The notes below the pieces were generated by a model. The model was not told the DNA's origin. It searched no databases and was given only the letters and a program-made list of their open reading frames with translations. Source: Mycolicibacterium helvum (GTDB lineage Bacteria; Actinomycetota; Actinomycetes; Mycobacteriales; Mycobacteriaceae). Taken from it: a stretch of 64,000 nucleotides of DNA. Shown piece after piece: positions 42,193-45,281 of this stretch (position 1 is the first letter of the stretch; each line of letters starts with the position of its first letter). The stretch is from NCBI RefSeq assembly GCF_010731895.1, contig NZ_AP022596.1:1550001-1614000 (forward strand), in the 5' to 3' direction. A program made the position numbers and the translations under genes.

Positions 42193-42654
42193 TTGTCCCC
42201 CAGACTCACTAATCCAACGCCGGATGATGTTAACTGGAGCACGCGCGCCACGCTGGGCGAACGCGGAACCGGTCGGCCAGGGGGTTGGTACAAGCGCATA
42301 CCAGATCTAGGGGGTTGTGCGGATGTGTCTCCCCGCCAACGGTGCTGCCGATTGATAGCGTCCTTTCCACGATCGCGGAACGCGCCGTGCCGCCGGCCCG
42401 AACGTGGGCAGTTCGGTGGCAATCCGCAACCATCTTGAGCGCCATGCCAATTCAAGGGCGAGTCTGCATGGGCCAGCCGATACGCCGTCGAAAGAGGTCA
42501 GCCGCTCCGTACGCCGCTGCTGCGAGGCAAACCACGAATGGAATGCGCCCAAACCATGTATGAAGGTCATTCAGGTTCAGATGAAAAGCGTTTCGATCAC
42601 ATAGGCATGGCTTCGACATCCGAGAAGCCAATCCGCACGTCGAGGGGAGTCAGG
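42193..42654. other. 462-bp divergent intergenic region
   Basis: It separates the metallopeptidase and repeat-rich surface-protein starts. It holds the 55-residue minus-strand ORF, a TTCAGGTTCAG direct repeat (42570-42580) and presumably the promoters of both flanking genes. I see no terminator, tRNA or mobile element. Confidence 0.5.
42452..42619 (-). CDS. Small single-helix membrane protein, 55 aa
   Basis: An ATG at 42619 opens a 55-codon frame with a clear membrane-protein pattern: polar start with HLNLNDLHTWFG, hydrophobic helix (IPFVVCLAAAAYGAADLF) and a basic end (RRRIGWPMQTRP), obeying the positive-inside rule. No ribosome binding site precedes the ATG. It lies inside the gap between two divergent envelope genes and is too short for usual cut-offs. 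The residue pattern looks protein-like rather than a chance frame, but codon evidence is limited. Function unknown. Confidence 0.45.
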   Translation of the reverse strand: MSKPCLCDRNAFHLNLNDLHTWFGRIPFVVCLAAAAYGAADLFRRRIGWPMQTRP

Positions 42655-44028
42655 GTGGGAACCGATAGTTCCGCGTATCGCAAGCCGGCAGGGGTCGTTG
42701 CCGCAGTAGCTGTGTCGTTGTGCACGGTGTTTGCTGGCGCCCCCGTTAGCGCTGCTGATCCATACGACGGCGACGACGGTGGCGGCAGCAGCTACGACGG
42801 GGGCGGCGATAGCGGTGGCGGCGGGTTCGAGGAGCCCTCGGGTGGCGGCTTTGAGGCACCCTCCAGCGGGGGCGTGGAGGAGCCCAGCGGCGGCGCAGAG
42901 GAGCCCAGTGGGGGCGGCACCCATGACGAACCCGGTGGCACGCACGAAGAGCCCAGCAGCGGCAACGAACCCGCCGGCGGCGGCACGCACGAAGAGCCCA
43001 GCGGCGGCAACGAACCCGCCGGCGGCGGCACCACGCACGAAGAACCCGGCGGCACACCCGAAGAGCCCGGCGGCGGCAACGAACCCGCCGGCGGCGGGGC
43101 GAACGAAGTGCCCGGCGAAGGATCTGATACCGGGAACGGTGGCAACGCACCCGAGCCGACACCGCAGGGTCCACAAGCATCGCAACCAGATGTCAAGACA
43201 GCCTCGGAGTCGGAGGTGACGACCACGACGTCAACTCAGATGACGTCTGAAGAGGTCACCAGCTACCAGGAGTCGATCTCGTCGACTGTGAGCAGCTCGT
43301 CGCTGACCAGCGGACTCAGTTTGAGCAGCCCCGTGACACTGTGGAATTCGGGCTGGATCTCCTACGACCGGTTCTACCGTCCGGTGTTCACCAACCCGTA
43401 CCGGACTCCGCTCAGTGTGGTGTACACCTCCGGCGGCCAACCTCAGGTCTTCACGGTTCCGCCGCTCCAGCGGGCCGCCCTGAACGTCCCCAGCACCGGC
43501 GTTTACAACTTCACCGCAATGACGCGCCCGGACTCCGGGCCGGCCACCAACCTTTCGGTGGGTAGCTTCTCCGGGGGCGGATACCAGCCGGCTCCCGGGC
43601 AGGCGCCGCCCCAAGCGCCGGCGTCCCTGAACACGCAGAAGAACGTGCTCGTCCAGGTGAAGTTCGACCGGGGGACGTCCACGCCATTCCGGGTGAAGAC
43701 CCTGACCGATCTCGGCGCCGATCCAACCGTCAACGGCACCACCAAGGTGCTCCTCGACGAGGAGATTCCGGCGTGGGGGCAGTGGTCGAAGACCGATAAG
43801 GGCGACGCTCTGTTCGTCATCAACCAGACCCAAACCCTGCCCGGCATCAATCCGCCGGCACAGCAACCGCTGCCCGGTTACAACGTGAAACTCACCGCCG
43901 CCGAGAAGACATCCTGGGTCGACAGGAACAAGACGTTGCTGATCAGCGTCGCCGTCGGCGCGGGCGTGCTGGCCTTGGCTGGCGTCGGGTTCATCCTGCT
44001 GACGAGGCGCCAACGCGGGACTCAGTAA
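42655..44028 (+). CDS. Repeat-rich, C-terminally anchored surface protein
   Basis: Starting at GTG 42655, with GAGGGGAG six bases upstream, the product is 457 residues. It has a signal peptide (cut near APVSAAD), an extracellular Gly/Pro/Glu region (about 40-165) of EEPSGGG, HEEP and NEPAGGG units, a Ser/Thr stretch, a globular part of about 200 residues (WNSGWISYDRFYRPVFTNPYRTP; VQVKFDRGTSTPFRV), and a C-terminal helix with a basic end (about 424-450). An earlier ATG (42607) has no ribosome binding site and would spoil the signal. It precedes the glutamate-receptor-like gene. Confidence 0.82.
   Translation: MGTDSSAYRKPAGVVAAVAVSLCTVFAGAPVSAADPYDGDDGGGSSYDGGGDSGGGGFEEPSGGGFEAPSSGGVEEPSGGAEEPSGGGTHDEPGGTHEEPSSGNEPAGGGTHEEPSGGNEPAGGGTTHEEPGGTPEEPGGGNEPAGGGANEVPGEGSDTGNGGNAPEPTPQGPQASQPDVKTASESEVTTTTSTQMTSEEVTSYQESISSTVSSSSLTSGLSLSSPVTLWNSGWISYDRFYRPVFTNPYRTPLSVVYTSGGQPQVFTVPPLQRAALNVPSTGVYNFTAMTRPDSGPATNLSVGSFSGGGYQPAPGQAPPQAPASLNTQKNVLVQVKFDRGTSTPFRVKTLTDLGADPTVNGTTKVLLDEEIPAWGQWSKTDKGDALFVINQTQTLPGINPPAQQPLPGYNVKLTAAEKTSWVDRNKTLLISVAVGAGVLALAGVGFILLTRRQRGTQ
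42816..43110 (+). repeat. Degenerate Gly/Glu/Pro-coding repeats
   Basis: Units such as GAAGAGCCCAGCGGCGGCAA and AACCCGCCGGCGGCGGCA recur many times within the surface-protein gene. They encode the EEPSGGN-EPAGGG stretch and could expand or contract by recombination. It is a coding repeat, not a CRISPR. Confidence 0.85.
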
Positions 44029-44159
44029 GGCCGGAAACCACCCGGTCCCCGCTCGCGACGAGGGCACAATGAGCTGACCGGTCCCGGTCAACGCGGGTTA
44101 CGATCCCCCTGCCTGGTCGCGTTGCTCACCCATATATCACCTTCTCCGGGAGGCTTCAT

Positions 44160-45281
44160 ATGAGCAGGCGCTGCTACGCACTGGTGCTGGTGGCGATCGT
44201 GGTCGCACTCTGCGGTGGCGCACCGGCATTGGCGCCACCAGCGGCTGCGCAGGAACGGACGGTGTCGCTGGCCGTGTACCAGATGTCACCGTTCGTGATC
44301 GAGAATCAGGGGCAGTGGACCGGGTTCACGATCGAGCTGTGGGAGCAGATCGCTCAGCGTCTCGGCTGGAAGACGAGTTACGTCAACGTCGGTGACGTCA
44401 AGAACCAGCTGCAGGCCGTCGCCGACGGCACGGCCGATATCGCCGCCGGCGGTCTGTCGATCACCGCCGAACGTGAACAGCGCTTTGACTTTTCACAGCC
44501 GATTCTCGACGCCGGGCTGCAGATCATGGTTCCCCGCGGGGACCACTCGGACTCCACACCAGGACTGCGCAGTTTCCTGGACCTGCTGTGGTCCAAGTCC
44601 ATGCTGGTCTGGCTGGGTGCGGCAGCGGTGGTCGCCCTCATTCCGGCCCACATCATGTGGTTGACCGAGCGCCGCCACCCGGAGTCAATGGTCGCCCGAT
44701 CATATTTCCCAGGCATATTCCAGGCCTTCGCCTGGGGCTTCGGTGCGCTCGCGGCTGTGCCTCCAGGTGAACCGCAGAACTGGGTGGGCCGCTCACTGGC
44801 GATTCTGTGGGGCTTCGCCGGCATCATCTTCGTCGCGCTGTACACCGCCAACCTCACGGCAAATCTGACCGTCGAACAGATCGAGAGCCGGATAGCCGGA
44901 CCGGACGACCTCTACGGCAAATCGGTTGCGACCGTGTCCAATACGACGTCCACCGACTACTTACAGGACATGGGCATCGGGTTCACCGCTCTACCCACCA
45001 TCGACGATTGCTATCAAGCCATCGAACAGGGCACGGCAGAGGCGGTGGTCTTCGACGCGCCGGTCCTGCGCTATTACGTGACCCACCGGGGTGTCGGTAA
45101 GACCGAGATGACCGGCGCCAGATTCCACGATGAAGACTACGGTGTGGCGTTCCGGTTGGGCAGCGACCTGCGCAAGCCCGTCGACGGAGCGCTGCTGGCC
45201 ATCCGCGAGGATGGCACCTACCAAACGATCTACCGGAAGTGGTTCGGCTCTGAAGTACACACATCCGGCGAGCGCAACTGA
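44160..45281 (+). CDS. Ionotropic-glutamate-receptor-like channel / periplasmic-binding fusion
   Basis: The 373-residue product has a signal peptide (about 1-30), then a ligand-binding domain split in two, as in GluR0-type prokaryotic glutamate receptors. S1 (about 33-140) carries LSITAEREQRFDFSQPI, whose Arg105 normally binds the ligand carboxylate. Next are a helix (145-168), a re-entrant pore-like segment (182-204), a second helix (209-231) and the iGluR gate motif as LYTANLTANLT (228-238). S2 (240-365) has the acidic ligand residue in VVFDAPVLRYY. The K+ filter TVGYG of GluR0 is absent. ATG 44160 follows GGGAGG. Alternatively it is an ABC-type receptor with membrane helices. Confidence 0.75.
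   Translation: MSRRCYALVLVAIVVALCGGAPALAPPAAAQERTVSLAVYQMSPFVIENQGQWTGFTIELWEQIAQRLGWKTSYVNVGDVKNQLQAVADGTADIAAGGLSITAEREQRFDFSQPILDAGLQIMVPRGDHSDSTPGLRSFLDLLWSKSMLVWLGAAAVVALIPAHIMWLTERRHPESMVARSYFPGIFQAFAWGFGALAAVPPGEPQNWVGRSLAILWGFAGIIFVALYTANLTANLTVEQIESRIAGPDDLYGKSVATVSNTTSTDYLQDMGIGFTALPTIDDCYQAIEQGTAEAVVFDAPVLRYYVTHRGVGKTEMTGARFHDEDYGVAFRLGSDLRKPVDGALLAIREDGTYQTIYRKWFGSEVHTSGERN

What the first reader, a model, noticed from the sequence alone, without database searches (positions are those of the whole stretch)
44160..45281. Mycobacterial ionotropic-glutamate-receptor-like channel
The product joins a bisected amino-acid-binding domain, a pore-like membrane unit and the gate-like sequence LYTANLTANLT. 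It has a candidate ligand Arg (105) and an acidic residue in VVFDAPVL. The K+ filter of GluR0 is missing, so ion preference is unknown. It is beside a repeat-rich surface protein and a polyphosphate kinase, which is not a normal amino-acid uptake locus.
Basis: partly seen in the sequence, partly recalled or inferred. Interest (0 to 1): 0.7.

Follow-up and report, generated by a model that had tools for sequence, protein, structure and literature searches.

The report
Mycobacterial glutamate-receptor-type channel
This mycobacterial gene has the core build of the glutamate receptors of animal nerve cells and is predicted to make a membrane pore that opens when an amino acid binds; its filter lacks the potassium signature, and a second such gene in the same genome carries positive instead of negative charge there, so the two would likely pass different ions.

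Summary
In detail: 44160-45281 (+) encodes a 373-residue protein with the S1-M1-P-M3-S2 build of ionotropic glutamate receptors (iGluRs). Pfam Lig_chan and SBP_bac_3 exceed their cut-offs; the pore segment alone retrieves GluK2; the predicted fold matches AMPA-receptor LBD-TMD chains and glutamate-bound Nostoc GluR0. Arg105 and Asp299 are conserved (98/98 and 95/98 rows), the gate LYTANLTANLTVE matches GluK2 at 10 of 13 positions, TxGYG is absent, and no ABC permease or ATPase was found nearby. It is a prokaryotic iGluR of the non-K+ kind described in 2010 (Ger Group 2), in a mycobacterial clade that I did not find in print. The flanking surface gene and PPK2 look incidental: 21 of 21 related PPK2 loci lack the channel gene, and in two of them the surface gene abuts PPK2. 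Three features look new: (i) the clade splits into acidic filters (32 of 33, window included) and basic, acid-free filters (20 of 20); (ii) this genome carries one of each; (iii) some mycobacterial MAGs carry operon-like arrays of two to four different iGluR genes, suggesting heteromers. Ligand, tetramer and ion flux are inferred, not shown.

The parts
44148..44153 (+). GGGAGG ribosome-binding-site-like sequence, 6 bases before the ATG
   Evidence: read
44160..45281 (+). whole iGluR-type gene, 373 aa plus stop
44160..44249 (+). N-terminal signal peptide (residues 1-30, end approximate)
   Evidence: hydrophobic peak at 1-30, helix 2-24; export and cleavage inferred
44253..44564 (+). S1 half of the ligand-binding domain (residues 32-135)
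44472..44474 (+). Arg105, predicted alpha-carboxylate contact
   Evidence: 98 of 98 rows; role from known iGluRs
44595..44669 (+). M1 membrane helix (residues 146-170)
44703..44753 (+). re-entrant pore (M2) helix (residues 182-198)
44754..44780 (+). filter loop AVPPGEPQN (199-207): Ala199 at the Q/R/N site, Val200 at +1, Glu204 acidic
   Evidence: placed by the GluK2 alignment
44781..44885 (+). M3 helix (residues 208-242)
44838..44876 (+). gate LYTANLTANLTVE (227-239), counterpart of SYTANLAAFLTVE
44886..45254 (+). S2 half of the ligand-binding domain (residues 243-365)
45054..45056 (+). Asp299, predicted alpha-amino contact
   Evidence: 95 of 98 rows; role from known iGluRs

Best explanation
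This mycobacterial protein has the S1-M1-P-M3-S2 layout of ionotropic glutamate receptors and likely works as an amino-acid-gated channel, predicted to pass small cations without K+ selectivity. Predicted steps: the signal peptide exports S1; S1 and S2 fold into a two-lobed pocket on the outer face of the plasma membrane; four subunits surround a pore lined by the M2 loop and closed by the M3 bundle at the YTANLTANLT gate. An alpha-amino acid (glutamate is the first candidate) would be held by Arg105 and Asp299, close the lobes and pull M3 open. Shown here: domain layout, sequence conservation, predicted monomer fold, absence of the K+ signature, absence of transporter partners among the neighbours scanned. 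Inferred: export, topology, tetramer, ligand, gating, ion preference. The physiological role would be fast coupling of external amino acids to membrane potential or osmotic balance, by analogy with what is proposed for GluR0.
Against: No current, ligand or oligomer has been measured here, and I found no such measurement for a non-K+ bacterial iGluR. The blocks of the model that hold the filter loop have low confidence (residues 191-200 mean pLDDT 72, 201-210 mean 66). Ala199 and Val200 match no filter of known selectivity that I know. The ligand half also resembles glutamine-, arginine- and lysine-binding proteins, so the ligand may not be glutamate. The gene family is patchy: full-length hits in 13 of 98 genomes of the genus, so it is dispensable.
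Confidence: 0.72

Rival explanations
1. A flux-free sensor: the protein binds an amino acid and changes shape, and the signal is conformational (or goes to an unknown partner) while the pore no longer conducts.
For: Ala-Val-Pro-Pro in the filter loop is unusual; loop of low model confidence.
Against: Gate and pore helix are conserved across the clade; no partner gene is shared across the loci compared; the chain has no cytoplasmic domain beyond short linkers.
Confidence: 0.1
2. A membrane-anchored amino-acid-binding protein that serves uptake or scavenging rather than conduction.
For: Source databases name some relatives 'polar amino acid transport system substrate-binding protein'; strong SBP_bac_3 match.
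Against: No ABC permease or ATPase in 12 neighbouring ORFs; the binding domain is split by a pore that alone matches GluK2.
Confidence: 0.08
3. A K+-selective channel like Synechocystis GluR0.
For: Shared layout; 11 of 98 rows in the wider family have TxGYG.
Against: TxGYG in 0 of 53 rows of the mycobacterial clade and 0 of 118 parsed database homologues. A literal GYG occurs in 2 of 28 rows of one branch, but upstream in the pore helix.
Confidence: 0.04
4. An amino-acid-gated channel that is anion-permeable or poorly selective rather than cationic.
For: Apolar residues at Q/R/N and +1; a 20-row group within the same 24-row set of the tree has a basic, acid-free filter.
Against: The window protein keeps Glu204 in the loop, net charge -1.
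Confidence: 0.06

Closest known systems
Prokaryotic iGluR Group 2 of Ger et al. 2010 (PMC2950845), and the Nostoc iGluR homologue whose ligand core is 2pyy
   Different: The main text of the 2010 paper, with ten Group 2 entries, does not contain the word stem 'mycobacter'. This clade has its own filter loops, a basic-filter branch and tandem arrays.
Synechocystis GluR0 (1ii5; PMC13099474)
   Different: GluR0 has the Gly-Tyr-Gly K+ signature; here it is absent.
Animal AMPA/kainate/NMDA receptors
   Same: Pore helix, gate motif and ligand residues; 47 of the 50 Foldseek rows shown are AMPA receptor chains, the others two of 2pyy and one GluK2.
   Different: No amino-terminal domain, no M4; Ala rather than Gln, Arg or Asn at the Q/R/N site.
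SBP family 3 of ABC transporters (GlnH, ArtJ)
   Same: Fold and ligand chemistry of the two lobes.
   Different: Split by a pore; no transporter partners among the neighbours scanned.

Membership tests
Ionotropic glutamate receptor family (Pfam Lig_chan) | S1-M1-P-M3-S2 in one chain | tested here: met
Ionotropic glutamate receptor family (Pfam Lig_chan) | Arg in S1 and acidic residue in S2 for the alpha-amino acid | tested here: met
   Arg105 98/98, Asp299 95/98 rows; feature from PMC2950845
Ionotropic glutamate receptor family (Pfam Lig_chan) | SYTANLAA-type M3 gate | tested here: met
   10 of 13 identical to GluK2; motif described in PMC3483616 (passages)
Ionotropic glutamate receptor family (Pfam Lig_chan) | tetramer with a ligand-opened ion pore | not testable with these tools
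   only monomers were predicted
GluR0-type K+ channels (Ger Group 1) | TxGYG K+ filter | tested here: not met
   absent in the window; 0 of 53 rows of the mycobacterial clade
Prokaryotic iGluR Group 2 (Ger 2010) | iGluR topology, P region of unrecognised selectivity, no ABC-transporter domain | tested here: met
   definition
Eukaryotic iGluR | amino-terminal domain and M4 | tested here: not met
   chain ends at 373, no helix of membrane length after S2
ABC-transporter SBP family 3 | uninterrupted binding domain with permease and ATPase partners | tested here: not met
   domain split by a pore; no permease or ATPase domain in the 12 neighbouring ORFs scanned

The most novel reading that the evidence does not exclude
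Mycobacteria evolved two opposed kinds of amino-acid-gated channel from one iGluR ancestor: an acidic-filter cation type (this gene) and a basic-filter type (Gly-Lys/Arg at and after the Q/R/N site, no acid in the loop) that passes anions or excludes divalent cations. The window's host carries one of each, and other mycobacteria build heteromeric receptors from two- to four-gene iGluR operons: excitatory-like and inhibitory-like glutamate signalling in a bacterium.
Probability: 0.15. Interest if true: 0.88.

Novelty: new variant of a known kind. Interest (0 to 1): 0.56.

Why it matters
GluR0, a K+ channel, is the only bacterial iGluR for which I found a functional description. A compact, two-helix iGluR without a K+ filter, with pore and gate resembling kainate receptors, would be a minimal model for how non-K+ glutamate receptors conduct. 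The natural acidic/basic filter pair in one genome makes charge control of selectivity directly testable, and the operon-like arrays offer a bacterial case of subunit mixing.

Tried and rejected
Neighbour-based function: PPK2 and the surface protein were considered as partners and rejected. Of the loci compared, many with short flanks, only L021 shares them (L058 and L070 each have one remote TetR or CMAS homologue). Of 21 other PPK2 loci (67-85% identical), 0 have the channel gene there, and in 2 (L126, L129) the surface gene lies directly against PPK2.

Shared neighbours across loci: a first clustering was swamped by shadow ORFs; after GC-position filtering only lineage-specific contexts remained, none universal.

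Obligate pairing of acidic and basic types: not supported, since the L021 genome has only the window type at E <= 1e-30.

The motif-based class labels are rough: the window itself fell under the 'VG[KR]' label by pattern, and 17 of 98 rows were 'other'. The charge counts use aligned positions instead.

Rows dropped: 98 of 108 aligned rows were kept (over 270 aligned residues). In one search, 118 of 120 homologues were parsed.

Papers: PMC2950845 abstract, passages and part 1 of Results; PMC13099474 abstract with start of the introduction, and Discussion; PMC6385376, PMC12226733, PMC6754398, PMC3483616 passages only; others as search listings. No report of a mycobacterial iGluR appeared in searches of an open-licence library (listings capped at 20 or 15 rows where more papers matched); subscription journals are mostly not covered.

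Full report
What is there. The window is bases 1550001-1614000 of a single-contig 6.4 Mb genome, whose named relatives are Mycobacterium and Mycolicibacterium. ORF 44160-45281 encodes 373 residues with a GGGAGG upstream. SBP_bac_3 is split around Lig_chan, and Lig_chan-Glu_bd also passes its cut-off. NCBIfam gives only sub-threshold matches, mostly transporter SBPs. The nearest PDB sequence is the Nostoc iGluR ligand core, then glutamine-binding proteins and AMPA receptors. The pore alone (140-256) gives GluK2 at E 1.4e-7 and GluN1, with no K+ channel among the 60 rows shown of 228. In that alignment Ala199 falls on the Q/R/N site and Val200 on +1 (site names recalled; the site is described).

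Is it alive? Against the L021 orthologue, 322 of 372 residues are identical, dN 0.073, dS 0.64 by NG86 (0.060 and 1.37 by YN00). Other genomes hold broken or partial copies: of 98 genus genomes, 13 have a full-length hit and three only pieces (G025, which runs to its contig end; G032; G043, one stop); G056 has an intact and a broken copy.

Where does it come from? PF00060 passes its cut-off in 10 of 396 genomes of the phylum: two of this genus, seven others and G379. The seven others (L100-L106) all have TxGYG; G379 has short frames and was not analysed, nor were the 14 genomes below the cut-off. A scan of genome contigs gave 84 confirmed relatives, 79 loci kept: mycobacteria, Asticcacaulis, Rhodoplanes, Armatimonadota, Chloroflexota, Chlamydiota MAGs, Rhodobacteraceae, cyanobacteria and others. 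In a quick tree of 98 rows, 53 mycobacterial-type rows form one set (SH-aLRT 100), joined with Asticcacaulis at 99; the K+-filter rows lie outside the 66-row set that holds them. The root is at the midpoint only, so the direction of K+-filter loss or gain is open.

The locus. DUF445-TetR-PPK2-CMAS recurs across the genus. The surface gene lies against PPK2 in 2 of 21 related loci, and the channel gene is present in the window and L021 but in 0 of those 21, so both look like later insertions. Elsewhere the family sits between an emb-type arabinosyltransferase and a carboxyltransferase and polyketide synthase (accD4 and pks13 by recall; L042), or behind an amine oxidase, a hydrolase, an LGFP-repeat protein and a small secreted protein, or near a dapD-like gene in Rhodobacteraceae (L079). 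Placement looks opportunistic, which fits a self-contained channel.

Filter split. In loop 199-207, one 20-row set has Gly199 in 20 of 20, Lys or Arg at 200 in 19 of 20 (Ser in one), at least one basic residue in 199-205 in 20 of 20 and an acidic residue in 0 of 20. The other 33 rows of the clade have an acid in 32 of 33 and a basic residue in 199-205 in 2 of 33. In 118 parsed database homologues: 17 basic, 95 acidic, 6 neither, 0 TxGYG. The window protein is acidic (AVPPGEPQN); its genome paralogue (C1:6107502-6108632, 51% identical) is basic (GRQTTQPTS), its Arg falling on Q/R+1 in a GluK2 alignment. Homomeric GluA2(R), with Arg at the neighbouring Q/R site, has detectable Cl- permeability (PCl/PCs 0.14), but negligible Cl- flux with the auxiliary subunit gamma-2 (PMC6754398, passages); so a basic ring here could cut divalent entry or admit anions, but need not. 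Pairing is not obligate: the L021 genome holds only the acidic type.

Arrays. L023 has four iGluR genes in a row, L029 three, L037 and L038 two each, L043 two and a piece, L039 one and pieces, L049 a divergent pair. L029 and L043 come from one MAG, L037 and L038 from another, so five MAGs are involved. An ATGA stop/start overlap in frame with the next gene occurs at L023 3-4, L029 2-3, L038 1-2 and L043 1-2. In the tree, genes group across genomes by type: L023-4 with L043-2 (97) and L038-2 (99), L023-3 with L043-1 (88) and L038-1 (91), L023-1 with L029-1 and L030 (99), L023-2 with L029-3 (93). They are therefore kept, distinct types rather than fresh duplicates. That they form heteromers is inference.

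Known or new. The non-K+ bacterial iGluR is known as a kind since Ger et al. 2010. A mycobacterial clade, the acidic/basic filter split and the arrays did not turn up in searches. Function remains a prediction.

Noticed in passing
L077, L079, L080, L082-L091, L097, L098 (Rhodobacteraceae): 15 rows carry a VNGGFEER pore with Asn on the Q/R/N site (L089 aligned to GluA2), as in NMDA receptors (recalled); one supported set (96) in the tree. Against a simple reading, K+ channels are also among the weak pore hits.
   Followed up: partly
L023 7896-12451; L029 2442-5929; L037; L038; L043; L049: Tandem or divergent arrays of two to four different iGluR genes in mycobacterial or actinobacterial MAGs, some with overlapping stop and start codons.
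   Followed up: partly
L029 4130-5929 (third gene of the array): Aligned residue at the Asp299 position is Ala, so this subunit may not bind an amino acid; the alignment there was not checked further.
   Followed up: no
L111 9479-10639 (own genome C1:6107502-6108632): Second iGluR-type gene with basic filter, behind a molybdopterin oxidoreductase-like gene and before a 6PGD-like and a G6PD gene.
   Followed up: yes
L063 (Mycobacterium sp. KBS0706); L025 and L040 (Bifidobacterium breve MAGs): Their iGluRs nest with Asticcacaulis and with mycobacteria respectively, so the names may be wrong; NCBI still lists KBS0706 as Mycobacterium.
   Followed up: partly
window 42538-44028: 496-aa repeat-rich protein with a C-terminal hydrophobic stretch and no Pfam family above cut-off; related copies beside PPK2 in 2 of 21 loci and in L021.
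   Followed up: partly
G056:C1:1419992-1421072, G032:C320, G043:C1:133523-133792: Broken or partial iGluR copies in three genus genomes.
   Followed up: no
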